Assembly: GCA_016882525.1 (NCBI GenBank)
Contig: VGPU01000004.1
Span: 1 to 64,000, forward strand
DNA from: Cyanobacteria bacterium M_surface_10_m2_119
GTDB lineage: Bacteria > Cyanobacteriota > Cyanobacteriia > PCC-6307 > Cyanobiaceae
Direction of reading: 5' to 3'
DNA: 64,000 nt
Below the pieces are notes generated by a model. That model made no database searches, was not told where the DNA came from, and saw only the letters and a list, made by a program, of their open reading frames with translations. Each line of letters starts with the position of its first letter. Position 1 is the stretch's first letter. A program made the position numbers and the translations under genes. Shown here one piece after another: positions 4,426 to 25,428 of this stretch.

Positions 4426-5592
4426 TCAGAGCGGAGCCTCGGCGGGGAGCCCTGCCGTGGAGGCCCGGTGATCCGCCGGCCCCAGGCGGGTGTAGAGGGC
4501 CTCAAGGCGCAGGGCCAGCTGGGCCAGCAGCTCACGGCTGAACTCCGGTGCCATCAGCAGCAGCATCTCGAACTCATGGCCCTCGAAGCAGAGCAGGGTG
4601 GCCCCGCCGGCGGCGGCACGCACCTCGGAGCGGCGGGGGCTGCTGCTGAAGAACGCCAGCTCACCGATCGTCTCCCCCGGCTCCAGCTCCGCCACCGCGG
4701 TGAACACGCCATTGCCGAGGGCCCGGGGCACCTGGCAGCGGCCCTGCACGAGGATCGCCACCCCGTCGGCAGGGTCCCCCACCTGAAACAGGGGATCCCC
4801 GGGCCCGAGCCGGCGCTCGGAGCCGCAGCGCGCCATGGCCAGCAGGGAGGCCGGCGGCAGGCCAGCCAGCAGCGGCACCTGCAGCAACTGCAGCAGGCGC
4901 TGCTCCGGCTCCAGGGGTTGACCGGCCAGCAAGGCCTGCAGCTCGGGATGGCTGGGACGGCCCGGGCGGGCCTGCTGGCGCAGGGCCGCCGCCCGCAGGG
5001 GGTCGCGCTGGTCCTGCACCCACAGGACCCATAGGGCCGTGTCCGGATCGGGATCCAGCCAGAGGCTGTCGACCACGGCAGCAGGGGCCGGCAAGGGGAC
5101 ACTGGACGCCCAACCCTCAGAGGCAGGCGGGGATGGGGATGGGGATGGGAACAGCCCGGGCAGGCGACCGGCCAGCTGGCGCTGCAGGCGCAGGGGCAAG
5201 GCGGGCAGCAGGCCGGCCACCTGCCGGGGGAGGGGATCCTCCGCCGGCAGGGCCTGAAGGGGGGGGAGGAGGGTGGTGAGCAGGCTGGCCAGGGTGCGTT
5301 CCTGCACCGGCACGAGCGGCGCCAGCAGGGGATCCACCGCGGCGGCGCTGCGCAGACTCTCCAGACCCTCAAGGCGACCCTGCAGCTGCACGGCCGCCTC
5401 GACCAGCCAGCGGCGATGGACACCCGAGCCGGCCGTGAACCGCTCCAGCAGCTCCTGCCAGGCGTCGTCGTCGAAGCCCTGCTCGCGGCGGATGCGCTCC
5501 AGGGTGCTCTGCAGGCTGGGGCGGGCAAGCACCTGGGCAGGGGGTTCATCGGGATCGAGGGCGAGCAGGTCCTGCACCGCCTCCAGGGCCAC
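4426..5592 (-). CDS. Cyclic-nucleotide-binding protein, C-terminal part of a TAG-split frame
   Basis: The 388 residues end in a cyclic-nucleotide-binding domain (about residues 255-380): LGPGDPLFQVGDPADGVAIL, then the phosphate-binding cassette GETIGELAFFSSSPRRSEVRA with its arginine. The front is helix-rich and leucine-rich, with a SPSPSP linker near residue 150. Upstream of the GTG at 5592 the same frame continues as LAITERRLLELDDREEDLRE straight into the 4Fe-4S gene, separated only by one TAG at 5665-5667. This is therefore probably the C-terminal half of a protein of about 900 residues, either split by mutation or truly read as two proteins. No good ribosome site was seen before the GTG. 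Confidence 0.7.
   Translation of the reverse strand: MALEAVQDLLALDPDEPPAQVLARPSLQSTLERIRREQGFDDDAWQELLERFTAGSGVHRRWLVEAAVQLQGRLEGLESLRSAAAVDPLLAPLVPVQERTLASLLTTLLPPLQALPAEDPLPRQVAGLLPALPLRLQRQLAGRLPGLFPSPSPSPPASEGWASSVPLPAPAAVVDSLWLDPDPDTALWVLWVQDQRDPLRAAALRQQARPGRPSHPELQALLAGQPLEPEQRLLQLLQVPLLAGLPPASLLAMARCGSERRLGPGDPLFQVGDPADGVAILVQGRCQVPRALGNGVFTAVAELEPGETIGELAFFSSSPRRSEVRAAAGGATLLCFEGHEFEMLLLMAPEFSRELLAQLALRLEALYTRLGPADHRASTAGLPAEAPL
5129..5149 (+). other. G-quadruplex-type G tract inside the cyclic-nucleotide gene
   Basis: Four G runs (GGGG, GGGG, GGGG, GGG) separated by AT each time lie on the plus strand and encode the SPSPSP linker on the minus strand. The pattern fits the G3+N1-7 quadruplex rule. 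It may only be a by-product of the repeated Ser-Pro codons. Confidence 0.4.
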
Positions 5593-5664
5593 CGCCCGGC
5601 GCAGCTCCCTGAGGTCTTCCTCGCGATCATCGAGCTCCAGCAGGCGCCGCTCGGTGATGGCCAG

Positions 5665-7131
5665 CTACCGCAGCACGGTGTGGTGGTCGTCATCGGAGAG
5701 CTGCAGGGAGCGACGCACCTCCGTGAGCTGCAACAGGGCCGCCGCCCGGGTGAGGCGACCGCTGCGCAGCAGATCCGCCACCACCCCCCGATAGACGGCG
5801 AGCCGGGAAGCCCCCATCTGGGCCGGCAGCACCTTGGCCAGGGTGACCACCTCGTCGGCGCTCAGATCCTCCGGCTTGCGCCCGTCGAGATGGTGGGCCA
5901 GATCGGGCACCAGCTTCTGCAGCTGCAGGCGCAGGCTGGTGCTGATGCGCTCCCGGGCGTAATGCCCCTGATCGCGCCGCAGTCCGCGGTAGAGCCACAC
6001 GGCGCTCACCGCGAGCACCAGCATGCGCACCGGCGGCATGGCGGCGGCAGCCGCGGGCACCAGGTGGGGCTCACTCAGGCCGAAGAAGGCGTTCACCGCC
6101 ACGAAGGAGGCCAGCAGGCGGGTGATCTGATCGGCGCGCTGGCCGGCAGCAGCGCCCAGCCTCGGGCGCAGCCGCCGCAGCTGGGCGGCGCGGAAGGCCC
6201 GGCCCAGCAGCACGGACAAGCCCGCCACGGCCAGCAGCAGCAGGGGTGCCCAAGGCCGCTGGGTGGCCGGCAGGCGCTGGAGAAGCAGAAAGCCGACTAC
6301 CAGGCCGGGATAGGAGAACCAGGCCCAGGCCAAGCCGGGTTTGCCGCGCAGTCCCTCCCAGAAACTGAGCTCGGCGTCGATGTCGATGCAATCTTTCTGG
6401 CAGCCCACACAGGCCCGCTGCACCTGGCCGCTGGGCCCGATGCTCCGACAGGTGGACTGGGTGATCTGGCCGGAACCGGCCAGGTGGGCGGCGCTGCCCA
6501 GCAGGCTGCGGGGACCCACCAGGATCGACTGCACCGGGGCCATCGGGCAGATGTACTGACACCAGGCCTTGCCGGCCCAGGCCCAGCCCACCACCAGGGC
6601 CGCCGCCAGGGTGGCCAGCAGGAAGACCGCCAGCCAGCGGGGGCTGTGGTTGAGCAGCACCAGGCGCAAGCTGAGACCCGCCAAAAACAGCCCCCACTGC
6701 AGGCGCACGTGATGGCGGGCCAGCCAGCCGGCCGGTGCGACCCGGGCCACGCTGGGGCGGCCCCGGACGTCGGGCACGCTGCGCTGCCAGCCGATCGCAC
6801 GGGCCAGCTGGGAGACGAAGGCAAGCGGACAGAGACGGCGCCAGGCCTCATGGCTGAGGACGACGAGCACCAGCAGCACCAGGGGCACACCGACCTGCCA
6901 GAACAGCCCGAGGGCGGTGGTGGCAACCGCCGGATCGGGCAGGAACAGGGAGCCGATCAGCAGCAGCCAGGCCGCCAGCAGCAGCCAGCGCACGACGTGG
7001 GCCTGGCGTTCACTCCAGGCGTGGAAGGCCAGCACAGGGGCAGGCGGTTCCGCAGAGAGGCCCAGGCTAGGCAGCGCATGGAGGCGGCACCAGCGCAAAA
7101 ACGCAGGCCTTTCAGCCAGGGAGGATGGCAC
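5665..7131 (-). CDS. Membrane 4Fe-4S (NapH/FixG-like) protein, N-terminal part of a TAG-split frame
   Basis: A polytopic membrane protein of about 488 residues. It has an N-terminal hydrophobic pair (near VVRWLLLAAWLLLIGSLFL and VGVPLVLLVLVVLS), CPLAFVSQLARAIGWQ, a cysteine pair in GKAWCQYICPMAPVQS, and CVGCQKDCIDID, an iron-sulfur motif like those of NapH, NosR and FixG. More membrane helices follow, and the last 90 residues are soluble and helical. The frame ends at TAG (5665-5667) after HHTVLR and continues without any shift into the cyclic-nucleotide-binding frame, so the intact ancestor was a membrane redox protein gated or regulated by cAMP/cGMP. GTG at 7131 is taken as start; another GTG at 7173 is possible but overlaps the divergent gene. 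Confidence 0.7.
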   Translation of the reverse strand: MPSSLAERPAFLRWCRLHALPSLGLSAEPPAPVLAFHAWSERQAHVVRWLLLAAWLLLIGSLFLPDPAVATTALGLFWQVGVPLVLLVLVVLSHEAWRRLCPLAFVSQLARAIGWQRSVPDVRGRPSVARVAPAGWLARHHVRLQWGLFLAGLSLRLVLLNHSPRWLAVFLLATLAAALVVGWAWAGKAWCQYICPMAPVQSILVGPRSLLGSAAHLAGSGQITQSTCRSIGPSGQVQRACVGCQKDCIDIDAELSFWEGLRGKPGLAWAWFSYPGLVVGFLLLQRLPATQRPWAPLLLLAVAGLSVLLGRAFRAAQLRRLRPRLGAAAGQRADQITRLLASFVAVNAFFGLSEPHLVPAAAAAMPPVRMLVLAVSAVWLYRGLRRDQGHYARERISTSLRLQLQKLVPDLAHHLDGRKPEDLSADEVVTLAKVLPAQMGASRLAVYRGVVADLLRSGRLTRAAALLQLTEVRRSLQLSDDDHHTVLR

Positions 7132-7157: not shown

Positions 7158-8601
<1,444 letters not shown>

Positions 8602-8612
<11 letters not shown>

Positions 8613-12036: not shown

Positions 12037-13957
12037 TCAGGCGCTGCTGCGACTGTCCTTGGGCAGGCCAAAGACAGGAACCTCCCCCGCCCCTTTCAAG
12101 GGCCAGTCCCCCATGAACTGCAAGGGAAGGGAGGCCTCCACCAGCGCAGCGGTGGCCCTGTCGCAGAGCACGGCGGCCTCCGGGAGCTGGCGGGTGAGGC
12201 TCTCCAGCCGGGCCGCCAGGTTCACCGTTTCACCGATCACGGTGAACTCCATCCGCCGGGGGCTGCCGATCTGGCCTGCCACCACCGTGCCGCTGGCCAA
12301 CCCGATCCCATTGGCCAGGGGCTCCTCGCCGTCGGCCTGCCAACGCGCATTGAGGCGGTGGAGCGCCTCTCCCATCGCCACGGCGGCCCGCACGGCGGCC
12401 ATCGCCTCCTCCTGCTCACCGCGGCTCACGGGGGATCCGAACACCGCCACCACGCAGTCGCCGATGAACTTGTCGATGGTGCCGCCATGGGCGGTGACCA
12501 CCTCGACCATCTCGGCGAGATAGGCATTGAGCTGGGACACCAGGGCAGCCGTCTGTCCCGCCTCCGCGCGCCGCCGGGTGAGCGCGGTGAAGCCCTGGAG
12601 GTCGCAGAACAGAACCGTGACCGGCAGCGACTTGCCGCGCAGGATGGTGTCGGCCTCCTCGGGAGTGGCCAGGATTTCCGACACAACGCTGGGAGCGACA
12701 TAGCGCTCGAAGGTGCGGCGCAGTCGGCGGCGCTCCCGGCCCTCCACGAGATAGGCGTCCACGCCATAGACCAGCGCCAGCGCCGCCAGGGCCGTGGCCG
12801 GCGCCAGCAGGGGCAGCCAGCGATGCCCCCAGCGCAGGGCGCCATAGCCAGCCAGCAGGATCAGGGTCAGCAGCCCGGCGAGCAGCCCCAGCCGCAGCCC
12901 CAGCGGCGTTGCCAGGCGCTGCATCCCCAGGACGGCCAGCAGCACCGGGGCCAGGGCCAGCAAGGCCCGGGACCACAGCCCTCCTGGCCAGGGGGCCAGC
13001 CCATCCCCGGCCAGGGAATTGGCCGTGGCGGTGGCCAGGGTCTCCAGGCCGGAGATCGGGCCAAAGGGCGTCGGCAGGCCCACGCCCCCCTGGTCCACCA
13101 CGGGGCCCACCAGCACCACGGCGCCGGCGATGGAGCCCCGCAGGGGATGGTCCCGCCAGCGGGCGGGGTCGAGCACCTCCCAGGCCGAGAGTCGGGGGAA
13201 CTGGGGTTCTGGTCCATAGACCTTGAGCTCCCGCTGGCGGTCGGGCTGCCGGCTGGGCAGGCCAGCCTGGCGGAGCACCGTGGTGCTCAGGGCCGGGAAC
13301 GGCGGCAGGTCCCTGGAGGGAAGGAGTTCCGCGCCGAAGAATTCCGGATGGCGGATCGCTTCGCCGCGGCCCGGGGGAAGGATGTTCGACAGTCCGAGCC
13401 CGGGGCGGTCGCCGGGGGGGGGCTGGCTGGGCGAGGGTCCCGCTGAAGCGCTCGGGGAGCACCAGAACAAGACCCGTGCCGAACTGGGCATCGTCCGGTT
13501 CCATGAACTCGGCCGCCAGGGCGATGTGGCCGCGGTGGCGGCCCAGAGCTCCCAGCAGGGCGGCGTCATCGGCCGGCCCCCGGGCACTGGCGCCCTCGAA
13601 GACGACATTGAGCGCCACCGCCCGGGCACCGGCCCCGCGCAACCGCTCGACCAGGTCGGCATAGCGGGCCCTGGGCCAGGGCAGGGTGCTGGTGCCCGCC
13701 GCCCAGGCCGGAGGGTTCGGCTCATCGGCGAACCAATGCCCCTGCTGCAGGCTGGCGTCGTCGATGGCCACCACCACCACCCCCGGCGGCACGGGTGCGG
13801 GTCCGCGCAGGCGCAGGAACTCGGCCTCAACGATCCGCTCCCAGCTCCGCCAGACCAGGGGGGGGCGGGCCACCAGCAGGGCCGTGGCGGCCAGGATCAA
13901 GGCCGAACACAGACGGAGCCGGGCGGGACGGCTCAGGGGGCAACGGAGCCAGGGCAC
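12037..13957 (-). pseudogene. CHASE2-adenylate/guanylate cyclase, frameshifted (module 1)
   Basis: Reads as one CHASE2-TM-class III cyclase gene only if the frame is changed near 13414-13422. Upstream of that point the minus-strand frame gives VVVVAIDDASLQQGHWFAD and LALAAEFMEP-type CHASE2 sequence; downstream the other frame gives WEVLDPARW, the membrane helices and an intact cyclase (LFCDLQGFTAL, IDKFIGDCVVAVFG, EFTVIGETVNLAARLE: both metal aspartates, lysine, threonine, asparagine and arginine present). The break coincides with nine consecutive C on the coding strand; eight would restore SGTLAQPAPPGDRPGLGLSN. The GTG at 13957 starts two bases after the natural FecR stop. It is closely related to the cyclase at 20381. 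Confidence 0.85.
13414..13422 (-). repeat. Nine-base homopolymer (C9 on the coding strand) at the cyclase frameshift
   Basis: A run of nine G on the plus strand lies exactly where the two halves of the module 1 cyclase change frame. Removing one base rejoins the halves without any other change. Such tracts slip during replication and are also common sequencing-error sites, so both phase variation and error are possible. Confidence 0.85.
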
Positions 13958-13959
13958 CC

Positions 13960-14711
13960 CTAGAAGGGGAGCAGCGGCAGGGGCACCAGCCCGCGGTTGC
14001 CACCGGTGCGCAGCAGCCCCAGCAGCAGACAGCTCCGGGGACGGACCCGAGCAGCATGGAGGTGAGAGCCTGCACCTTGGGCAAGGGGAAGAAAAAGCCC
14101 TGCAGCAGGTCACTGGCGAAATAGCGCCGGTAATCCGAGGACACGAGACAGCGCCGACTCTCCAGCTGGCCATCGGCCGCGAAACGAAGCACCTCCCGGT
14201 TGGCGGCCAGGGGAACCACCGAGGGCTTGCCGCTTTCGCCCAGGCTCGGTGAGAAGGTCATCATGCCGTCGAGCACGGCCACCTGGGTGGTCTGGTCGTC
14301 GAGCACTTCCACGACGTAATGGGTGCCCCGCACGCTCATCCGGATGCTGCCGACACAGGTGTCCTGCCTGCCCGAGACCAGCATCTGCCCATTCTGCAGA
14401 CGACCACAGTCGGCGCCGAGACGCAGCTGGGAGTTCTTGCTGATACGGGCCTGGGCGCCGTTGCTCAGGGCAAGGCTGCCCCGGCTGTTGCCGGTGGTGA
14501 TCACTTCGGGCCGGAAGGCCAGCTGATTCACCCGGGCCTGTTTGCGATCAATGAACAGCTCATTGCCGTCAAGGATCTCCTGCACGCGGGCATCGGGCCG
14601 GGGCCCCGCCACAGCCGCAAGCGGTGGAAGTGCTCCGCAGGACGCGGCCAGCAGGAGACCAGCCAGACAACCCCGCCGACCACCCCGGCACGTCGTTCAC
14701 GAAGCACGCAT
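13960..14711 (-). pseudogene. FecR-domain protein, decayed (module 1)
   Basis: The FecR core is clear (VQEILDGNELFIDRKQARVN, then SVRGTHYVVEVLDDQTTQVA). The frame is open from GTG 14612, but upstream in the same frame lies a good secretion signal (CLAGLLLAASCGALPPLAAVA) preceded by ATG CGT GCT TCG TGA: the natural start at 14711 is followed by a stop at codon 5 (14697-14699). Near 14038-14042 a one-base slip is also needed: the present frame turns cysteine-rich and runs to 13827, while the neighbouring frame ends LVPLPLLPF at TAG 13960-13962, two bases before the cyclase start. Translation from GTG 14612 (13827-14612) would lack the signal peptide. Confidence 0.65.
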
Positions 14712-14778
14712 CGAAGGAGAAGCGGCCACGACACAGCGGGGCAGACGCCCACTAGGCAAAGTGTCCGGACGGAACTGT

Positions 14779-16644
14779 TCACTGCTCACACTTCTGCAGT
14801 GGGCGGCGCAGGCCGCGCAGTCCGTAGACCGCCATGGGCTCGGCCCAGCCCTTGAGACGGTGCTCCCCCAGGGGATCTGCGTCGAGCTGATCCGCCAGCA
14901 GGGCATGCACATCGGCGCTGATCAACACCGGATAGTCGGGAAACTGGCGGGTGAGCCCCTCCAGCCGACTGGCCAGGTTCACGGCGGCCCCCACCACCGT
15001 GAACTCCAGCCGCTCGCTGGAGCCCAGGTTGCCGGCGATCACATCCCCCAGGTGGATGCCGATGCCCTGACGGAGGGTGGGCTCCCCCCGGGCGAGCAGC
15101 TCGGCGTTGAGCCGCTGCAGCGACGCCTGCATCGCCAGGGCGGCTCGCACCGCCGCCAGGGCTTCCAACGCATCACCGCGACTGCGGGGCACCCCGAACT
15201 CCGCCATCAGGGCGTCGCCGATGAACTTGTCGAGCAAGCCGTTCTCCGCCATCACGGCCGCCGCGATCGCCTCGAAGTAGCGGTTCAGGAGGGCGAACAG
15301 CGCCTGGGGTTCCAACTGGCCGCTGAGCACCGTGAAGCCCACCAGGTCGGCGAACAGCACCACACAGCGGGTGCGGGTTCCCCCGAGCTGGGTCCCGAGG
15401 GGGCCGGGCTCCCGCAGGATGTCGGCCAGCAGGGCGGGCGACACACGCCGGGCCAGCACCTGATGGAGGTAGGCCCGCTCCCGGCTTTCCACCAGCCACT
15501 GCCCACCGGCGCGCGTGCCACCACCCAGCAGGGGAGCGGCGACCAGGGCCGTCACCGGCAGCCACCAGCCCGCCAGCCAGGCCAGGGCCACCCCACCCAG
15601 CCCTCCTGCCGCCAGGGCGAGGGCCGTGGTTGCGGTGCCGGCCGCGGTGCCCGGCCGGGCCAGCCCCGCCAGGGCCACGAGCCCCCAGGCCAGAAGCAGC
15701 CCCGCACTGAAGGCCGGCTGCGGAGTCCGGAAACCGCGCCCCTCGAGCACCGTGGCCAGCGCCGCCGCCTGCAGCTCCACGCTGCTCAGGGGACCGAAGG
15801 GTGAGGGGCGCCGGTCGGCAAGCCGGGAGGGGGTATGCCCCAGCAGCACGATCCGGTTGCGCCAGAAGCCGGGTGGTTGCTGCAGCACCTGCCAGGCCGG
15901 CACCACGGGCACGGTGCCGCTGGGCCCGGGGAAGTCAATGCCCAGGCTGGCTGGCGGCGGCTGGCGACCGGCCGCCACCCAGGCCAGGGCCGGGGGATGG
16001 GGGAGGGGGAAGCCAGCGAGCGCCTGGCTCTGCCAGCGCTGGCCGGGGATGGCCTCAATGACCCCATCCGGGCCCTCCAGCAGGGCATCCAGACCAACCG
16101 CACCCAAGGAATTGACGGGCCGGCGCAGCTGCAACAGCTCGAGTCCGGAGACCGGATCGGGCTCCACGCCATAGCCGGCTGGCAGCACCAGGCGCTGCCG
16201 CCAGGGCTGCAGGCGACTCCGGAAGGCCCGATCGTCGGCGGGGCCAAAGCTGCTGGGGTGGGGATAGAGCAGCGTGAACACCACCCGTTGCGCTCCCTGC
16301 TCCAGCAGGAGAGCCGCCAGCTCCGCCTGCAGGCCCCTGGGCCAGGGCCAGGGAGTCCCCATGCGCCGCCACAGGGCAGAACGCTCGACCTCCTGCTTCG
16401 ACAACCGCTCGCCCAGGGTCAGGGAGGCCTCATCGATCTCCAGGATCACCAGCTCCGGCGGCGGACGGCGCGGGCCGCGCAGGCGAAAGGCCAGAGCCCG
16501 CCAACCGGCATCGAGCCTCTCCATCGCTGGACTGGCCACCAGCGTGGCCAGCAGCACGGCCGGCCAACCCCAACGCAGCAGCGGCGGGCCCCGCCTGCCC
16601 TCCTGCCCCACCAGGGTGCCAGGACTCTGCTGGGGGCTGGTCAT
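14779..16644 (-). CDS. CHASE2-class III nucleotide cyclase (module 2)
   Basis: A 621-residue membrane cyclase. It has an N-terminal helix (about 20-45), an extracytoplasmic CHASE2 sensor (about 50-320, with LVILEIDEASLTLGERL and VFTLLYPHPSSFGPADD), two or three membrane helices (about 325-400) and a cytoplasmic class III cyclase domain (about 430-610). Metal aspartates are in VLFADLVGFTVL and DKFIGDALMAEFG; the lysine in DKFIGD and threonine in LEFTVVG favour ATP; the VNLASRLE asparagine and arginine are present, so it should make cAMP. The start ATG overlaps the stop of the FecR gene upstream (TGATG type), showing tight coupling. It is the most divergent of the three cyclases here. Confidence 0.92.
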   Translation of the reverse strand: MTSPQQSPGTLVGQEGRRGPPLLRWGWPAVLLATLVASPAMERLDAGWRALAFRLRGPRRPPPELVILEIDEASLTLGERLSKQEVERSALWRRMGTPWPWPRGLQAELAALLLEQGAQRVVFTLLYPHPSSFGPADDRAFRSRLQPWRQRLVLPAGYGVEPDPVSGLELLQLRRPVNSLGAVGLDALLEGPDGVIEAIPGQRWQSQALAGFPLPHPPALAWVAAGRQPPPASLGIDFPGPSGTVPVVPAWQVLQQPPGFWRNRIVLLGHTPSRLADRRPSPFGPLSSVELQAAALATVLEGRGFRTPQPAFSAGLLLAWGLVALAGLARPGTAAGTATTALALAAGGLGGVALAWLAGWWLPVTALVAAPLLGGGTRAGGQWLVESRERAYLHQVLARRVSPALLADILREPGPLGTQLGGTRTRCVVLFADLVGFTVLSGQLEPQALFALLNRYFEAIAAAVMAENGLLDKFIGDALMAEFGVPRSRGDALEALAAVRAALAMQASLQRLNAELLARGEPTLRQGIGIHLGDVIAGNLGSSERLEFTVVGAAVNLASRLEGLTRQFPDYPVLISADVHALLADQLDADPLGEHRLKGWAEPMAVYGLRGLRRPLQKCEQ

Positions 16645-17342
16645 CAGCGCTGCAGTCCCAGCTCCCGTTCCAGCACCGGCAGGGTCTCCATCGGTGCGGT
16701 GAAGCCATTGAGCAGGATGCTCTGGGCCCGGCGTGTGCGGAGCTCGGCCTGACCCAGGCGTCGCGGCCCCTGCCAGGCCTGGGGCCCCTGCGAGCCGGCC
16801 GACGCCGCCCAGGTGAGCTGTTCCCCACTCCGCAACACGAAGCGCTCACCGGTCTCGGTGCGCACCTGCACCTCCCCTTCCCAGCTGAACACCTTCACCG
16901 CCGCCGCGCTGACCTCCAGGAACACCGTGGTGCCAACGATCGACGCGGTGCCGACACGGGTCTTGACCCGCAGGGGCGCCCCACCACCGGAGCCGGGATT
17001 CACCCAGGCGATGATCTGGCCCCGCTGCAGATCCAGCCCTGACGAAGCCAATCGGAGCAGGGCATCGCCGCCCAGCCTGAAACGGCGGCCGTCGGCGAGC
17101 TCGACCTGGAGACGGCCGGGCTTCTGGGTGCGCAGGACCGTGTCGGGCAGGAGGTTCTGGCCGATTCGGGCGTCGGTCTCAGTGCGACCGGGAAGACGCA
17201 CAAAGGCCGGACGGGTGGGGACGTCCACGATCCGGGGCAGGCTCCCCTGGCCAGCAGGAGGGGCTGACGGAGCGCAGCCCGCGAGAGCCACGGCCAGCAC
17301 CATGACCCTGAGCGGCCTGAAACGGTGCTGGCGAGACGACAC
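16644..17342 (-). CDS. FecR-domain lipoprotein (module 2)
   Basis: A 232-residue exported protein. The N-terminus is a lipoprotein signal (RVMVLAVALAGCAPS, lipobox LAGC, cysteine about residue 23). The FecR core follows (about 55-170): VLRTQKPGRLQVELADGRRF, ASSGLDLQRGQIIAWVN, VKTRVGTASIVGTTVFLEV and WEGEVQVRTETGERFVLRSG. FecR proteins usually relay signals across the periplasm, but no sigma factor or TonB receptor is here; the only partner is the CHASE2 cyclase that overlaps its stop. That it presents a cue to CHASE2 is inference. Confidence 0.85.
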   Translation of the reverse strand: MSSRQHRFRPLRVMVLAVALAGCAPSAPPAGQGSLPRIVDVPTRPAFVRLPGRTETDARIGQNLLPDTVLRTQKPGRLQVELADGRRFRLGGDALLRLASSGLDLQRGQIIAWVNPGSGGGAPLRVKTRVGTASIVGTTVFLEVSAAAVKVFSWEGEVQVRTETGERFVLRSGEQLTWAASAGSQGPQAWQGPRRLGQAELRTRRAQSILLNGFTAPMETLPVLERELGLQR

Positions 17343-17375
17343 GGGGAAAGCCGAAGCTTTCCCCAGGCTGCTGAC

Positions 17376-17834
17376 TCAGCCCTCGACGCGCCACACCTGA
17401 TCAGCGGGGGTCCAGTCGCTCAGCTCGGAGGGCTGGAACCAGAGGCCGATCTCGAACGCGGCAGTTTCGGGAGCGTCGGAGCCGTGGATCACGTTGCGGC
17501 CGATGTTCACGGCCAGGTCGCCGCGGATGGTGCCGGGTTCAGCCTCGAGGGGCTTGGTGGCGCCGATCAGCTTGCGGGCGCTGGCGATCACGCCGTCGCC
17601 TTCCCACACCATCGCCACCACGGGGCCGGAGGTGATGAACTCCACCAGACCGGCGAAGAAGGGGCGCTCGCGGTGCACGCCGTAGTGGCTCTCGGCCAGC
17701 TCACGGCTGGGGGTGAGCTGCTTGAGGCCCACCAGCTTGAAGCCCTTGCGCTCGAAGCGGCCGAGGATCTCCCCCACCAGGCCGCGCTGCACGCCATCGG
17801 GCTTGATGGCAACAAAAGTGCGTTCAGCAGCCAT
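17376..17834 (-). CDS. ndk: Nucleoside diphosphate kinase
   Basis: Ndk balances nucleoside triphosphates by a ping-pong phosphotransfer. The 152-residue protein has the usual length, starts [19 protein letters not shown], and has the catalytic histidine (about residue 117) in [12 protein letters not shown]. The frame extends upstream to 17987 but the ATG at 17834 is the family start. It shares a divergent region of about 158 bases with speA. Confidence 0.98.
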
Positions 17835-17992
17835 GGAAACAGAAGGTTCGGATCCGGCCCATCGTCCGCGGCGGGGCTGCCGCTTGGCAAGCACAACTCT
17901 GGCGGTGGTCGTCAGCCCTCTTCCCCAGCCCATGACCGCACCACCCCCCTGATGACGGCAGACTCCAAAATCAGGGCGTATCCGCACCTGCA

Positions 17993-19987
17993 GTGCCTGT
18001 GGTGACCGCTCCTTCCGCCAGCGCAGGCCAACGCCATGACTGGAGCGTCGCCGACAGCGCCGAGCTCTATGGCCTCAACCGCTGGGGGGATCCCTACTTC
18101 GCTGTGAACGCCCGCGGCCACGTGTGCGTGCAGCCCCAGGGGGAACGGGGCGGCAGCCTGGATCTGGTGGACCTGGTGCAGGGGCTGGAGGGCCGCAACC
18201 TGGGCCTGCCGCTGCTGATCCGCTTCGACGACATCCTCGAAGACCGGCTCGAGCGACTGCACGCCGCCTTTGAGCGCGCCATCGCCCAGTACGGCTACGC
18301 CGGCCGCTACCAGGGCGTGTTTCCGGTGAAGTGCAACCAGCAGCGCCATGTGGTGGAGGAGCTGGTGGCCTGCGGCAAGCGCTGGCATTTCGGCCTGGAG
18401 GCCGGCAGCAAAGCCGAGCTGCTGATCGCCCTGTCGCTGATCGACGACCCCGAGGCGCTGCTGATCTGCAACGGCTACAAGGATCAGCGCTACATCGAGA
18501 CGGCGATCCTGGCCCGCCGCCTCGGCCGCCAGCCGGTGGTGGTGATCGAGCAGGCCGACGAAGTGGAGCGAATCATCGCCGCCAGCCGTGAGCTGGGAGC
18601 CGCGCCGTTCATCGGCATTCGCGCCAAGTTGTCGAGCCGCAGCACCGGCCGCTGGGGCAGCTCCGTGGGCGAGAAAGCCAAGTTCGGCCTGTCGATTCCC
18701 GACGTGCTGGCCACGGTGGAGGCCCTGCGCGCCGCCGGGCTGCTGGACGACCTGCGCCTGCTGCACTTCCACGTGGGCAGCCAGATCAACGACATCGCCG
18801 TGCTCAAGGACGCCCTGCAGGAAGCCGGGCAGATCTACGTGGAGCTCACCAAGCTGGGCGCGCCGATGGGCTTTCTCGATGTGGGCGGCGGCCTCGGCAT
18901 CGACTACGACGGCAGCCGCACCGCCAGCGCCGCCTCCACCAATTACTCGCTGCAGAACTACGCCAACGACGTGGTGGCCACGGTGCGCGAGTGCTGCGAG
19001 CCCCATGGGGTGCCGGTGCCCACGCTGGTGAGCGAGAGCGGCCGGGCCCTGGCCAGCCACTTCTCGGTGCTGGTGTTCAACGTGCTGGGCTCAGGCAGTG
19101 TGCTGGGCGGTGGCTGCGCTGCAGGTGGCGGTGCTGCAGGTGGAGCGGCCGACGAGCCGCTGATCGTGCGCAACCTGCGCGAGACCCTGGGCGCCATTAC
19201 CGCCCTGGGCGCCGGCGACCCCGACAGCCTGGCCCGGTTGCAGGAGGCCTGGAACGACGCCATCAAGTTCAAAGACGACGCCCTGGCCGCCTTCCGCCTG
19301 GGCTACCTGAACCTGCCCCAGCGCGCCGCTGCCGAGCAGCTCACCTGGGCCTGCGCCGAGGCGATCGTGGCCCGCCTGCCCCAGGACGGCAGCCCCCAGA
19401 ACGGCCCCGTGCCCGATGAACTCAAGGCCCTGCAGGCCGCCCTGGCCGGCACCTACTACGCCAACCTCTCGGTGTTCCGCTCGGCCCCCGACACCTGGGC
19501 GATCGAGCAGCTGTTCCCGGTGATGCCGATCCACCGGCTCAACGAACGGCCCACCCAGCTCGGCCACTTCGCCGACCTCACCTGCGATTCCGACGGCAAG
19601 CTCGCCCGCTTCGTGGGCAACGGCCAGGTGAAGCCCCTGCTGGAGCTCCATGCCCTGCGCCCCGGCGAGCCGTACCTGATCGGCCTGTTCCTGGGCGGCG
19701 CCTACCAGGAGGTGATGGGCAACCTGCACAACCTGTTCGGCAGCACCAATGCGGTGCACATCCGCCTCACCAGCGGCGGTGGCTACCGGCTCGACCACGT
19801 GGTGCGGGGCAACACCAACGCCGAGGTGCTCGAAGCGATGGAACACGACCCGGAGCTGCTGCTGGAGCGGCTGCGCCTGGCCAGCGAAGCGGCGATCGGC
19901 CGCGGCGACCTGCGGATCAGCGACGCCCGCCGGCTGATGGACCACCTGGAGACCAGCCTGCGGCAGACCACCTACCTGCAGAACTGA
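17993..19987 (+). CDS. speA: Biosynthetic arginine decarboxylase
   Basis: SpeA makes agmatine from arginine with PLP, the first step to polyamines. The 664-residue length, the PLP-lysine block [46 protein letters not shown] and [17 protein letters not shown] identify it. A Gly/Ala-rich insert lies near residues 365-385 (between [12 protein letters not shown] and [10 protein letters not shown]). Either GTG 17993 or GTG 18002 could start it; no ATG is available. The 3' end nearly touches the convergent DUF3307 gene. Confidence 0.96.
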
Positions 19988-19990
19988 GCC

Positions 19991-20341
19991 TCACCACAAG
20001 GGCAGGTCGAGCCAGCTGCAGGCCAGGCCCGTCCACCCCAGCTTGCAGAGCAGATGCAGGGCCTGATCCGGCCCAAGGCGGAACCAGCCGCGGCACTTGA
20101 GGTGATCGATCAGGGCATGCACCAGCCATTCGGCCAGGCCCAGCTGGGGCAGGCCGGTGATCACGGCCACCAGGAACCCATGGATGCCGGCATGGGCGAC
20201 AAGCCACCACGGCCAGGGCAGGGTGTGATCGCGGCCGGCACACTTCTCCACCCCCATGCGATCGCTCTGCAGGCCGAAATCGCCGAGGAAATGCCCCATC
20301 GCCAGGAGAGCGAGCAGGGCGGCGCCCGAGGTGGTCGGCAT
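19991..20341 (-). CDS. DUF3307 membrane protein
   Basis: A 116-residue small membrane protein of the DUF3307 family: LLALLAMGHFLGDFGLQSDRM near the N-terminus, HAGIHGFLVAVITGL, AEWLVHALIDHLKCRGWF with its conserved histidine and aspartate, and a final hydrophobic helix. About three to four membrane segments. The function of the family is unknown. It sits between speA and cyclase module 3. Confidence 0.8.
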   Translation of the reverse strand: MPTTSGAALLALLAMGHFLGDFGLQSDRMGVEKCAGRDHTLPWPWWLVAHAGIHGFLVAVITGLPQLGLAEWLVHALIDHLKCRGWFRLGPDQALHLLCKLGWTGLACSWLDLPLW

Positions 20342-20380
20342 GGCGGCGGGACGAGGGGGCAGCGGGGGAGCTGGGCTTCC

Positions 20381-22291
20381 TCAGCTTGACGGTTCGGGCT
20401 GCCCCGCACCAGAGCCGGCCGCCGCCCACACCCCGAAGACCTCGGTGGGCTCGAGCCCCTTGATCTCCTGCACGCCGAAGCTGCGCAGGCTGAAGCCCGG
20501 CTCTCCAGCAAGCAGGCCGGCGGTGGCGGCATCGATGCACACCGCCGCATCCAGACGGCGGGTGAGGCCCTCGAGGCGGCTGGCCAGATTCACCGTGTCG
20601 CCGATCACGGTGAACTCCAGCCGCTGGGGGCTGCCGATCTGACCGGCGAGCACCTCCCCGGAAGCCAGCCCCACGCCGCTGGCGAGGGGGTCCAGCCCCT
20701 GTTCACGCCAGCTGGCATTGAGGCTGTCCAGCCGGACCCGCATCGCCAGCGCACAGCGCACGGCCGCCGCCGCCTCCTGTTCCACGCCGCGCCCCACCGG
20801 CGAGCCGAACACGGCCATCACCGCATCGCCGATGAATTTGTCAACCGTGCCGCCGTGGGCCGTGATCACCTCGACCATGGCGCCGAGATAGGTGTTGAGC
20901 TGGCGCACATGCACCTCGGTCTCGCCGGCGGCACTGCGGCGGCGGGTGAGCTCGGTGAACCCCTTGAGATCAGAGAACAGCACCGTCACCTTGCGCACGC
21001 GACCGCGCAGGATGCCCTGGGCCGCAGCGGGATCCGCCAGGATTTCGGCCACCACGCTGGGGGCCACGTAGCGCTCGAAGGTGCGGCGCAGGCGGCGCCG
21101 TTCCCGCCCCTCCCGCAGGTAGGCATCCCCGCCGTAGATCAAGCCCAGGAGCACCAGACCGCTGGCTGGGGACAGCAACGGCAGCCAGCGCTGCTGGCTG
21201 CTGAGCATCAGCCAGGCCGCCAGCACCTGGCCAGCCAGCACCGCCGCCACCACCCCCAGCCGCCAGGGCAGGGAAGAGCGCACCAGGGCCAGCCCGGCCG
21301 CCGCCGCCACGCCTGCAGCCGCCAGCAGGGCCCGGGACCAGGGGGTGAAAGGCCAGGGGGCCAGACCGTCGCCGACCAGGGAATTGGCAACAGCGGTGCC
21401 CAGCACCTCCAGGCCGGAGAGCGTGCCGAAGGGCGTGCTGTGGCCCGCCTCCCCCTGGGAGACGACGGGACCCACCAGCACCAGGGCACCACGCACGGCC
21501 GGCCGCAGGGGCTGGCGGGACCAGCGCTTGGGGTCGAGCACCTCCCAGGCGGGAATGCGGCGCAGCTGCCCCTCCGGGCCATAGACCTGCAACTCCCGGG
21601 CCGCATCCGGCTGCAGGCTGCGCCGGCCGGCCAGCTGCAGCAGACGTGCCGCCAGAGATGGGGGAGAGTCGACCCCCTGGGATTCGAGGGCGGCGGGATA
21701 GACCGCGGGATGGCGCAGGGGCTGGCCCGGGGAGGGGTGGAGGAGGTTGGTCACCCCCAGGGGCAAGGTGCTGGGCACAGCCGCCTGGAGAGCCTCAGGA
21801 CGCACGAGCACCAGCCCACCGGCCCCCTGGTTGTCCTGGGGCTCCAACCACTCGGCAGCCAGGGCGATCCGCCCCGAATGGCGGCGCAGCACGGCGACCA
21901 GGGCCGCATCATCGCCAGGACCCTGACCACTGGGGCCTTCGAAGACCACGTTGATCGCCACCGCCGCCGCCCCGGCCTGGAGGAGGGTCTCGCAGAGGCG
22001 GCCGTAGGCGGCGCGGGGCCAGGGCAGCCGGCCGATACCCTGGGCCCAGGGTGGGATCTCGGCCGCCCCGTCCTGGCCCTGCGCAAACCAGTCCCCCTGC
22101 TGGAGGGTGGCGTCATCAATGGTGACCAGCACCACGGCTTCAGGGGCAGGCCGTGGACCACGCCACTGGAGCAGCTGGGCATCGAGGTTGCGCTCCCACA
22201 CCCGCAGCCGCGGCCCCGGCCAACCCGCGGAGACCCCCGCCCAGCAGGCCGTCAGGGCGGAGAGCAGCAGCAGCACCCCACGGCGGCCCAC
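20381..22291 (-). CDS. CHASE2-class III nucleotide cyclase (module 3)
   Basis: A 636-residue intact cyclase. The CHASE2 part spans about residues 40-310 (VVLVTIDDATLQQGDWFAQ, AVAINVVFEGPSGQGPGDDA, WEVLDPKRW, VLVGPVVSQGEAGHSTPFG). Membrane helices lie about 325-400, a charged linker DAYLREGRERRRLRRTFERY follows, and the cyclase runs about 430-600. The aspartates in LFSDLKGF and DKFIGDAVMAVFG, the lysine, the threonine in EFTVIGD and the VNLASRLE asparagine and arginine are all present. It closely resembles the broken module 1 cyclase. The FecR gene ends 16 bases upstream. Confidence 0.93.
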   Translation of the reverse strand: MGRRGVLLLLSALTACWAGVSAGWPGPRLRVWERNLDAQLLQWRGPRPAPEAVVLVTIDDATLQQGDWFAQGQDGAAEIPPWAQGIGRLPWPRAAYGRLCETLLQAGAAAVAINVVFEGPSGQGPGDDAALVAVLRRHSGRIALAAEWLEPQDNQGAGGLVLVRPEALQAAVPSTLPLGVTNLLHPSPGQPLRHPAVYPAALESQGVDSPPSLAARLLQLAGRRSLQPDAARELQVYGPEGQLRRIPAWEVLDPKRWSRQPLRPAVRGALVLVGPVVSQGEAGHSTPFGTLSGLEVLGTAVANSLVGDGLAPWPFTPWSRALLAAAGVAAAAGLALVRSSLPWRLGVVAAVLAGQVLAAWLMLSSQQRWLPLLSPASGLVLLGLIYGGDAYLREGRERRRLRRTFERYVAPSVVAEILADPAAAQGILRGRVRKVTVLFSDLKGFTELTRRRSAAGETEVHVRQLNTYLGAMVEVITAHGGTVDKFIGDAVMAVFGSPVGRGVEQEAAAAVRCALAMRVRLDSLNASWREQGLDPLASGVGLASGEVLAGQIGSPQRLEFTVIGDTVNLASRLEGLTRRLDAAVCIDAATAGLLAGEPGFSLRSFGVQEIKGLEPTEVFGVWAAAGSGAGQPEPSS

Positions 22292-22307
22292 GGTGCGTCA
22301 GCCGGGC

Positions 22308-23084
22308 TCAGAAGAACCCGAAGCCGAAGCCCCGGAAGGAGGGCCCCGCCGGGCTCACCGGCAGGGAGGGAATGGGCACGCTGGGCAGATTGGAGCGCAG
22401 GAAGCTCTCCAGAGCTGCCTGGGCAGGGAGGGGCAGCTTGAAGCCCTCGAACAGCGGACCATTGAGGATCTGGGTGTAGTCGCCACTGCTGAGGGCCAGG
22501 ATCGTGAGCACCACCCCCTCGGGAGAGAGCCGTAGCCGTTGACCGGCCTGCAGGGTGGTGGCCGGCTTCTCGGGGATGGGCTCGCCCTCCCGGGTGGGCT
22601 GCACCTCCACCTCTCCCTCAAGGACGGAGATCTCGGTGTCGCCGGCCTCGTTCACCTCGATCACATAGTTGGTGCCACGCACGCTGAGGCGGGCGGAGCG
22701 GGTGCAGCCCGCCTGTTTGCCGGAAACCAGCACCTGGCCCTTGTCGAGCACGAAGCAGGCACTGCCGAGCCGCAGCTGCGACTGGCGGTTGAGCCGACCC
22801 ACCGCACCGCCATCGAAGGCGAGCTGGCCGCGACTCTTGCCGGTGGAGATCAGCTGGGGAGAGCGGGCCTTCTGCTTGACGCGGGCCTGTTCCCGATCGA
22901 TGAACAGCTCCTTGCCATCCAGGATCTCCTGCACCACGGCCGTCTGGCTCTGCTGCGCCGCAGCCGGCAGGGGCGTGAGGGCGGCGACCGCAAGCAGGGC
23001 GAACGCCCCCGGGAACAGGCCAGGGAGCGGCCAGGGCTTGAGACGCGGCCTGCCGCAGGCAGACCTCCGGCGGAGAGAGGGCAC
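22308..23084 (-). CDS. FecR-domain exported protein (module 3)
   Basis: A 258-residue exported protein. The GTG at 23084 has a GGGAG ribosome site upstream and leads into a basic start plus hydrophobic core (LFPGAFALLAVAALTPLPAAA), a Sec signal cut near AAA-QQSQ. The FecR domain carries VQEILDGKELFIDREQARVK, LRLGSACFVLDKGQVLVSG and LSVRGTNYVIEVNEAGDTE, and the C-terminus is glycine/phenylalanine-rich. It is the intact counterpart of the decayed FecR at 13960. The frame is open upstream to 23207 but without features. Confidence 0.87.
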   Translation of the reverse strand: MPSLRRRSACGRPRLKPWPLPGLFPGAFALLAVAALTPLPAAAQQSQTAVVQEILDGKELFIDREQARVKQKARSPQLISTGKSRGQLAFDGGAVGRLNRQSQLRLGSACFVLDKGQVLVSGKQAGCTRSARLSVRGTNYVIEVNEAGDTEISVLEGEVEVQPTREGEPIPEKPATTLQAGQRLRLSPEGVVLTILALSSGDYTQILNGPLFEGFKLPLPAQAALESFLRSNLPSVPIPSLPVSPAGPSFRGFGFGFF

Positions 23085-23139
23085 GACTGCTCCCAGCTCA
23101 GGTCGGGACCATTGTGACGCGAGGGTGCGGCACGGCCCC

Positions 23140-23880
23140 TCAGCTGGCACAGAAGCGCACAAACAGGGAGAGCCGGTCGGTGGGCTGGGGTAACTCGGCC
23201 GGATCAAAGGGGGCGGCCTCGGCAGCCATGCCGCGCAGCATCACCGGCCGGAGGTCATGACCCTCCTGCCGAACCTCCAGGGGCTCCAGCCGGCTGCGCC
23301 CCACGGCTGCGGCCAGCTCCCGCGCCTGGGCCAGCGCATCCTGGTAGGCCGCGCGCAGCAGGCGAGCCCGCACCGCGGGCACGGCGGCGGGATCGGCTTC
23401 CGCCGTCACGGGATTGAGGCGCACGCCCTCCAGCGCACCCACCCCACGCACGAAGGCCTGCAACCGGGCTGGTGCCAGCTGCCCGCTCACCTGCAGGTTG
23501 GCCACCACCCGTTCTCCGCTGGCAGGGGGCTGCTGGGACCGCTGCCAGGTGATCGGGGAGCTGACGCGCAGATCCTGCACCTGCAACGCCTGGAGGCGTT
23601 CGCGCACGGCCGCCAGCCGCCGCTGCAGGGCCGCCAGAGCACCATCGGCATCGGCGGCCTCGGCCTCCAGCCCCAGGGAGACGGCCAGGCGCTGGGTGTC
23701 GCGCTTGAGCTCCGCATTGCCGCGCGTCTCGAGCAGGGCTCCACGGCACTGCAGCTGCACCTGCACCTGGGACCTGGACGGGGTGAGCGCACCCGCGCCC
23801 AGCACCAGCCCCAGGGGGAGGAGCATCAGGGGCCGCAGCCTCGGCAGCCGGCAGGACGACAGGCGTGGAATGGAGGCCAT
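23140..23880 (-). CDS. SIMPL (DUF541) domain exported protein
   Basis: A 246-residue protein with an N-terminal signal or anchor (LRPLMLLPLGLVLGAGAL) and a SIMPL/DUF541 domain: GNAELKRDTQRLAVSLGLEA, LQALQVQDLRVSSPITW, and the helix LLRAAYQDALAQARELAAAV. Such proteins are periplasmic or outer-envelope oligomers of unclear role. The ATG at 23880 is the family start. It diverges from the MscS-type channel at 23938 with only 57 bases between, so the two may share control. Confidence 0.85.
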   Translation of the reverse strand: MASIPRLSSCRLPRLRPLMLLPLGLVLGAGALTPSRSQVQVQLQCRGALLETRGNAELKRDTQRLAVSLGLEAEAADADGALAALQRRLAAVRERLQALQVQDLRVSSPITWQRSQQPPASGERVVANLQVSGQLAPARLQAFVRGVGALEGVRLNPVTAEADPAAVPAVRARLLRAAYQDALAQARELAAAVGRSRLEPLEVRQEGHDLRPVMLRGMAAEAAPFDPAELPQPTDRLSLFVRFCAS

Positions 23881-23937
23881 GGCACCACGGGAGGTCTGGC
23901 TCCATGCTGGGGCCAGCTGGACAATTCGCCGCCGGCC

Positions 23938-25428
23938 ATGGCCCTGCTGCAACGGTTGCTTCCGGCGCTCCTGGCCGCTGCCCTCCTCCTGCTGCTGCAT
24001 CGCCTGGTGCAGCCCCAGCTCCGCCGCCGTGCCCTGGGGCAGCTACCGCTGGGCCTGATCGCCCTGGCTCTGCTGAGCTGGAGCCTGCTGCCCATCGTGG
24101 AGGCCCTCGGGCTGCCCGGCGAGTACCGGCGCTGGCTGGGCCTGGCCGATGAGCTGTTGATCAGCTACGCGGCGCTGCGCCTGGCGCTGTGGCTGGGCCT
24201 GGAGCTGCCGGGGGGCCTGGGGTGGTGGCGGCGACCACGGGAACTGCTGCTGCAGTTGCTGATGCTGGGGGGCGGGGCCCTGCTCACCGTGCTGGTGGTG
24301 CGGGAGTCGGCCCGTTTCGACCTGGTGGGACTGGTGACCACCTCCGCGGTCCTCACCGCGGTCGTGGGCTTCGCCGCCCAGGAAACGCTCAAGGATCTGT
24401 TCGCCGGCCTGGAACTGCAGCTGGGTGACGATTTCGCGGTGGGGGACTGGCTGGACGTGGGCCAGGGGGTGCAGGGCCTGGTGGAGACGATCACCTGGCG
24501 CGACACCCAGCTGCGCACCCTGGACGGCTGCCGGCTGATCATTCCCAACAGCCGGATCACGGCCGAAGTGATCAGCAACCGCTCGGCGAGCGGCGTGGCC
24601 AGCAACCGCTTCGAGATCGGCCTCGACTACGACTACCCCCCCGCCCAGGCCCGGTCCCTGCTGGAGGGGGTGCTGCACCAGCACCCGCTGGTGCTGCCCA
24701 CACCGGCACCCCGGGTGCGCATCAAGAGCTTCGCTGACAGCGCCATCACCTACGAACTGCAGGTGTGGCAGCGGGACATGGGCCAGCGGGCCGAGCTGGA
24801 CCTGCGCAGTGCCCTGCTGGAGCAGATCTGGTACGCCCTCCAGCGCGCCGGCCAGAGCATCCCCTTCCCGGTGCGGGAGCTCCAGCCCCGCCGGCGCCAC
24901 CACAGCCCGGCCCCTGCCGAGACCAACGGCGCTCTCGAACTCAGCGGGCTGTTCCAGGTGCTGCCGTTGCAGCAGCGGCAACAACTGGCGCTGGCTGGGA
25001 GGGTGCTGCGCTTCGGCCCCGGAGAAGCGATCGTCTGCGAAGGGGATGCTGGCGACTGCCTCTACCAGGTGCTGAGCGGGCGGGTGGAAGTGCTCAAGAC
25101 CATCGCCCCGGGCCGGCAGGTCTCGGTGCGGGAGCTGGAGTCGGGTGACCTGTTCGGGGAAATGACCCTGCTGCTCGACACCCCGCGCACGGCAACGGTG
25201 CGGGCCCTGGAGGAATGCCGGCTGCTGCAGCTCGACCGGGGGGCCCTCGCGCCCCTGCTGCAGTCCCAACCGGAACTGCTGGAGCAACTGGCCGAGCTGG
25301 TGAGCCACCGCCGCCAGGCGCTCGATCAACTGCAGCAGGTGGAGAGCGGGGCGCCAGACAGCAGCCTGCTGGGGACGATGCGCCGGCTGTTTCAGGCCGT
25401 CACAGGCAGCAGCTCGGCTGACGCATGA
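23938..25428 (+). CDS. MscS-type channel with cyclic-nucleotide-binding domain
   Basis: A 496-residue membrane protein. About four hydrophobic segments fill residues 1-150; the MscS pore and beta domain follow (about 135-300: AVVGFAAQETLKDLFAGLEL, GDWLDVGQGVQGLVETITWR, IPNSRI). The C-terminal cyclic-nucleotide domain (about 330-450) has RVLRFGPGEAIVCEGDAGDC and the cassette DLFGEMTLLLDTPRTATVRA with glutamate and arginine in place. Channels of this type are thought to be gated by cAMP/cGMP. With three cyclase pairs just downstream on the other strand, it is a likely local effector. The frame is open far upstream, but the ATG at 23938 starts the membrane part. Confidence 0.92.
   Translation: MALLQRLLPALLAAALLLLLHRLVQPQLRRRALGQLPLGLIALALLSWSLLPIVEALGLPGEYRRWLGLADELLISYAALRLALWLGLELPGGLGWWRRPRELLLQLLMLGGGALLTVLVVRESARFDLVGLVTTSAVLTAVVGFAAQETLKDLFAGLELQLGDDFAVGDWLDVGQGVQGLVETITWRDTQLRTLDGCRLIIPNSRITAEVISNRSASGVASNRFEIGLDYDYPPAQARSLLEGVLHQHPLVLPTPAPRVRIKSFADSAITYELQVWQRDMGQRAELDLRSALLEQIWYALQRAGQSIPFPVRELQPRRRHHSPAPAETNGALELSGLFQVLPLQQRQQLALAGRVLRFGPGEAIVCEGDAGDCLYQVLSGRVEVLKTIAPGRQVSVRELESGDLFGEMTLLLDTPRTATVRALEECRLLQLDRGALAPLLQSQPELLEQLAELVSHRRQALDQLQQVESGAPDSSLLGTMRRLFQAVTGSSSADA

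What the first reader, a model, noticed from the sequence alone, without database searches (positions are those of the whole stretch)
4426..7131. One long frame (4Fe-4S membrane module plus cNMP-binding domain) split by a single TAG
The 4Fe-4S protein ends at TAG (5665-5667) and the same frame continues for over 400 residues into a cyclic-nucleotide-binding domain, with no shift and coding-like sequence directly after the stop (LAITERRLLELDDREE). A CAG-to-TAG change would explain it. The intact ancestor would couple a membrane redox centre to cAMP/cGMP. It could now be two proteins, a dead gene, or an error.
Basis: partly seen in the sequence, partly recalled or inferred. Interest (0 to 1): 0.6.

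Follow-up and report, generated by a model that had tools for sequence, protein, structure and literature searches.

The report
Recently broken cyanobacterial redox-cAMP sensor gene
In this picocyanobacterium, a gene that relatives read as one long protein (an iron-sulphur membrane part joined to a cAMP/cGMP-binding part) carries a single in-frame stop codon; it is most likely a recent loss-of-function mutation, sitting beside a cluster of cAMP-making enzymes that its relatives also keep nearby.

Summary
Confirmed, on the minus strand (7131→4426): a 488-codon 4Fe-4S membrane frame ends at TAG 5665-5667 and continues 412 codons in phase to a cyclic-nucleotide-binding (CNB) domain. Most Cyanobiaceae relatives encode both parts in one frame (856-999 aa). 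The aligned residue is variable: Glu in the nearest clade, Gln rarely, so the proposed CAG ancestor is unsupported. The stop falls inside a predicted helix, no CTA-anticodon tRNA was found, and TAG ends the neighbouring argJ, so read-through is unlikely. The 3' half has an intact ligand cassette and is no faster evolving than the 5' half, so the stop is recent, an assembly error, or the 3' half is still translated. Best reading: a young nonsense mutation leaving a truncated membrane protein. The 5' half also lost two in-frame loops, including a conserved Cys pair. Relatives have independently lost the CNB end twice (once also splitting the gene upstream) or the 5' end once, so the halves can survive apart. 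New beyond the finding: a class III cyclase lies within 20 kb of the gene in 22 of 36 cyclase-bearing relatives (1.6 expected, phylogeny uncorrected), suggesting the intact protein is a cAMP effector.

The parts
5665..7131 (-). 5' frame: membrane 4Fe-4S module plus start of a helical domain, 488 aa, GTG start at 7131 (start uncertain; frame open to 7173 and beyond), ends at TAG
6388..6561 (-). Cys-rich 4Fe-4S motif (CQYICP ... C ... CVGCQKDC), cysteines invariant in 28 relatives
5665..5667 (-). In-frame TAG; Glu in nearest relatives, variable elsewhere; falls in a predicted helix (model residues 480-493)
4426..5664 (-). 3' frame in phase: 412 codons, helical region then CNB domain, TGA stop
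4426..5592 (-). First usual start for a separate 3' protein: GTG at 5592, 388 aa; not a conserved residue, starts mid-helix
4558..4815 (-). CNB domain (PF00027) with intact phosphate-binding cassette GETIGELAFFSSSPRRSEVRA
12037..13830 (-). CHASE2-class III nucleotide cyclase 1
14779..16644 (-). CHASE2-class III nucleotide cyclase 2
20381..22291 (-). CHASE2-class III nucleotide cyclase 3
23257..25428 (+). MscS-type channel with CNB domain (second predicted cNMP target nearby)

Best explanation
The gene descends from a one-frame protein of about 900 aa: a multi-helix membrane protein with NapH/CcoG-like 4Fe-4S motifs, a cytosolic all-helical region and a C-terminal CNB domain. In the intact relatives it most likely senses cAMP (or cGMP) made by the CHASE2 cyclases encoded nearby and uses binding to modulate electron transfer through, or the redox state of, the membrane Fe-S centre (inferred from domains and neighbourhood, untested). 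In this genome a recent single nonsense mutation ends translation inside a helix, so the cell makes at most a 488-aa membrane fragment without its nucleotide sensor, and the CNB half is untranslated or nearly so. Shown: frame, stop, one-frame homologues, neighbourhood. Inferred: that the stop is real in the organism, that it abolishes the 3' product, and the function of the intact protein.
For: One-frame homologues in most Cyanobiaceae that have the gene. The stop lies in predicted helix 480-493 of a continuous helical region, not at a domain edge. No CTA-anticodon tRNA among the tRNAs read: ARAGORN named every one of 43 RF00005 hits except one fragmentary hit. TAG ends argJ at its normal C-terminus (YVRINADYTT) in the same window, so TAG is a working stop. 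The 3' half has no further stop, a canonical CNB cassette and GC3 equal to the 5' half (0.881 in both). On the window's terminal branch the 3' half is not accelerated relative to the 5' half (share of total tree 7.9% against 13.7%), so it was constrained as protein for most of that branch. Under neutrality an intact 412-codon frame is unlikely beyond roughly 0.03-0.05 substitutions per site (with an assumed indel rate). The 5' half looks relaxed: terminal branch about twice that of its neighbours, and two in-frame loop losses including a nearly invariant Cys pair.
Against: One assembly only, no reads: an error cannot be excluded. Intactness of the 3' half also fits continued translation. Free-standing versions of each half persist in relatives with dN/dS of about 0.26 (5' half without CNB, G017/G163) and 0.32 (3' half alone, G004 against G001). 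All Fe-S cysteines remain in the window copy. The deletions could be divergence rather than decay, and the window's place in its clade is unresolved (open fork, long branch).
Confidence: 0.6

Rival explanations
1. The TAG is a base-calling or assembly error and the organism has an intact gene.
For: 3' half fully intact and constrained; a single base separates the frame from a sense codon; draft assembly in 118 contigs.
Against: The other long genes checked in the window (alaS, gatB, three cyclases, arginine decarboxylase, MscS-CNB) are unbroken, so the sequence is not visibly error-prone; the 5' half shows independent oddities (lost loops, long branch).
Confidence: 0.2
2. Functional gene fission: the two halves are now two proteins, a free membrane Fe-S protein and a soluble CNB protein translated from GTG 5592 by reinitiation.
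For: Relatives show each half can persist alone; 3' half constrained; a GGAG lies about 12 nt before the GTG (sequence).
Against: The GTG is mid-helix and not conserved; the GGAG spacing is long; natural splits in relatives use other junctions and have also lost the CNB domain.
Confidence: 0.11
3. Programmed or leaky read-through of the TAG still gives some full-length protein.
For: In-phase, conserved 3' half.
Against: No suppressor tRNA found; no relative has a stop at this site; TAG terminates argJ.
Confidence: 0.07

Closest known systems
Cyanobacterial 4Fe-4S/CNB membrane proteins (possibly Synechocystis slr0593, listed as 'cAMP binding membrane protein' in PMC3516471)
   Same: Relatives across the class have the same order of modules in frames of about 950 aa
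NapH/CcoG-type polyferredoxins (Pfam Fer4_5; TIGR02745 ccoG)
   Same: Membrane helices with CxxxCP-type Cys motifs; all 28 relatives hit Fer4_5
   Different: CcoG match far under its cut-off (20 against 316.7 bits); from general knowledge these lack the helical region and CNB domain
CNB-regulated membrane proteins such as the M. loti cyclic-nucleotide-gated K+ channel and SLC9C1
   Same: CNB domain fold (model residues 739-877 on the M. loti CNB domain, Z 16.6, rmsd 2.9, 131 aligned) placed C-terminal to a membrane module
   Different: Membrane module is an Fe-S protein, not a channel or exchanger; no PDB match for it with E below 1

Membership tests
One-frame 4Fe-4S/CNB membrane protein family of Cyanobiaceae | Homology over both halves in the same order | tested here: met
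One-frame 4Fe-4S/CNB membrane protein family of Cyanobiaceae | Uninterrupted reading frame | tested here: not met
   TAG at 5665-5667; the window copy is a broken homologue, not an intact member
One-frame 4Fe-4S/CNB membrane protein family of Cyanobiaceae | Fe-S-type cysteines conserved | tested here: met
   C101, C191, C195, C228, C241, C244, C248 invariant
One-frame 4Fe-4S/CNB membrane protein family of Cyanobiaceae | Inter-helix loop Cys pair (nearly invariant) | tested here: not met
   Absent in the window copy and in L105
CNB domain (PF00027) | Score above gathering cut-off | tested here: met
   54.7 against 27.5 bits
CNB domain (PF00027) | Phosphate-binding cassette with Gly-Glu and Arg | tested here: met
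   GETIGELAFFSSSPRRS
CNB domain (PF00027) | Binds cAMP or cGMP | not testable with these tools
   needs a binding assay
CcoG (TIGR02745) | Score above curated cut-off | tested here: not met
   20 against 316.7 bits
Stop-codon read-through gene | Suppressor tRNA, or a stop conserved at the site in relatives | tested here: not met

The most novel reading that the evidence does not exclude
The stop is adaptive gene fission, uncoupling a membrane Fe-S redox protein from its cyclic-nucleotide sensor while both halves stay expressed, inside a conserved cAMP neighbourhood (CHASE2 cyclases, FecR proteins, MscS-CNB channel) in which the intact protein would be a cAMP-controlled redox effector not yet described functionally.
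Probability: 0.1. Interest if true: 0.55.

Novelty: new member of a known kind. Interest (0 to 1): 0.32.

Why it matters
As a broken gene it is ordinary. The useful part is what the intact relatives imply: a membrane Fe-S protein with a cyclic-nucleotide sensor whose gene tends to lie by adenylate/guanylate cyclases in picocyanobacteria would be a direct route from cAMP to membrane redox chemistry, and repeated loss of one or other end in different lineages offers natural deletion variants for testing what the sensor does.

Tried and rejected
Plus-strand reading of the interval: shadow frames only. Suppressor tRNA: none found (a first ARAGORN run in Python printed nothing, and was repeated with the tool). 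CAG ancestor: not supported. Frame continuity as evidence by itself: rejected, common by chance at this GC content. PDB fold of the membrane half: no match with E below 1, best 1.2; the full-length model finds mainly CNB domains. Literature for a CHASE2/CNB/Fe-S neighbourhood: nothing describing it in the held papers. A Synechocystis chromosome record to test slr0593 is not in the collections.

Full report
Observation. The gene runs on the minus strand from a GTG at 7131 (frame open further upstream) to TGA 4426-4428, with one in-frame stop, TAG at 5665-5667. Read with TAG as a residue it gives 901 aa from the GTG. In-phase abutting long frames are frequent in this GC-rich window, so the case rests on homology.

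Homologues. Searches of the window's own genome, 60 relatives, all 13 held genomes of the genus and 300 genomes of the family found the gene in many Cyanobiaceae. Fetched loci mostly show one frame of 856-999 aa holding the Fe-S half (A), a helical region (B) and the CNB half (C). The genome also has an intact paralogue (open frame of 959 codons) on contig C29, of a class-wide family; the paralogues read here lack the CNB cassette Arg. At the TAG column relatives have E, V, I, T, L, K, M, W and, rarely, Q. In the tree the window falls in a 13-row starred clade whose other members carry Glu at the column, except one Val; the fork itself is open and the window branch is the longest (1.02).

Exceptions are informative. 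G017, G163 and G103 have frames of 618-622 codons that stop about 75-110 residues into C, with no CNB sequence downstream. G138, G254, G120 and a second copy in G216 have A and BC in separate frames, and their BC lacks the CNB domain. G004, of the window's own genus, has C alone with an intact cassette. Pairwise dN and dS suggest constraint on the A-B-only form (0.076/0.29 for G017/G163) and on the C-only form (0.114/0.36 for G004/G001).

State of the window copy. All Fe-S cysteines are kept but two loops are missing, one with a nearly invariant Cys pair. Branch lengths fitted on one topology give the window 13.7% of the tree for AB but 7.9% for C: AB is accelerated, C is not more so. C has no second stop, GC3 of 0.881 as in AB, and an intact cassette. 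With 30.8 stop-making substitutions expected per unit neutral divergence, survival of an intact C beyond 0.05 substitutions per site has probability 0.21 by stops alone and 0.01 if indels occur at 5% of substitutions (the indel rate is my assumption). So the stop is young, or false, or C is still made.

Stop function. The stop is inside predicted helix 480-493. No tRNA with a CTA anticodon was found, and TAG ends argJ correctly in the same window. The first usual start after it is GTG 5592, mid-helix and not conserved.

Neighbourhood. The window holds three CHASE2-class III cyclases, three FecR-domain proteins and an MscS-CNB channel at 12-25.4 kb. In 36 genomes with an A-B-C gene and any PF00211 cyclase, 22 have a cyclase within 20 kb of it, against 1.55 expected (coordinates; the window's own genome is one of the 36). 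This is not corrected for shared ancestry, contig ends hide some links, and part of it is plain synteny (the gene lies between coaE-gatB-DAO oxidase and argJ both here and in G117). Other relatives keep the link with other neighbours: MscS-CNB beside the gene in G078, FecR and arginine decarboxylase in G224. The three genomes lacking the CNB end have cyclases but none on the same contig; too few to test.

Mechanism. Inferred: cyclase-made cAMP or cGMP binds the CNB domain and, through the helical region, alters the membrane Fe-S module. Nothing here measures binding or redox activity.

Verdict. A probably real, recent nonsense mutation in a known type of cyanobacterial protein; ordinary as a mutation, moderately interesting for what the intact family and its cyclase neighbourhood imply.

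Noticed in passing
12037-25428: cAMP island: three CHASE2-class III cyclases, FecR-domain proteins (13827-14612, 16644-17342, 22308-23207) and an MscS-CNB channel, with an arginine decarboxylase gene on the opposite strand between them; linkage to the 4Fe-4S/CNB gene recurs in relatives.
   Followed up: partly
7158-8612 (+): Dephospho-CoA kinase (CoaE) is fused in one frame behind an MpaB/rubber-oxygenase-like domain (PF09995); in a relative (L111:4196-4807) coaE stands alone.
   Followed up: no
L087:3142-5007, L088:4696-6549, L089: Relatives' 4Fe-4S proteins ending at 618-622 codons without the CNB domain, with dN/dS well under 1.
   Followed up: partly
L091, L092, L093, L135, L136: Relatives with the Fe-S module and the helical region in separate frames (adjacent, about 30 nt apart, in L091-L093) and no CNB domain.
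   Followed up: partly
L133 (reverse complement 4655-5773): Same-genus genome G004 keeps only the CNB-bearing 3' part (372 aa) with an intact ligand cassette.
   Followed up: partly
L099 and L100: In G005/G001 the Fe-S half is far more conserved than the CNB half (94% against 75% aa identity).
   Followed up: no
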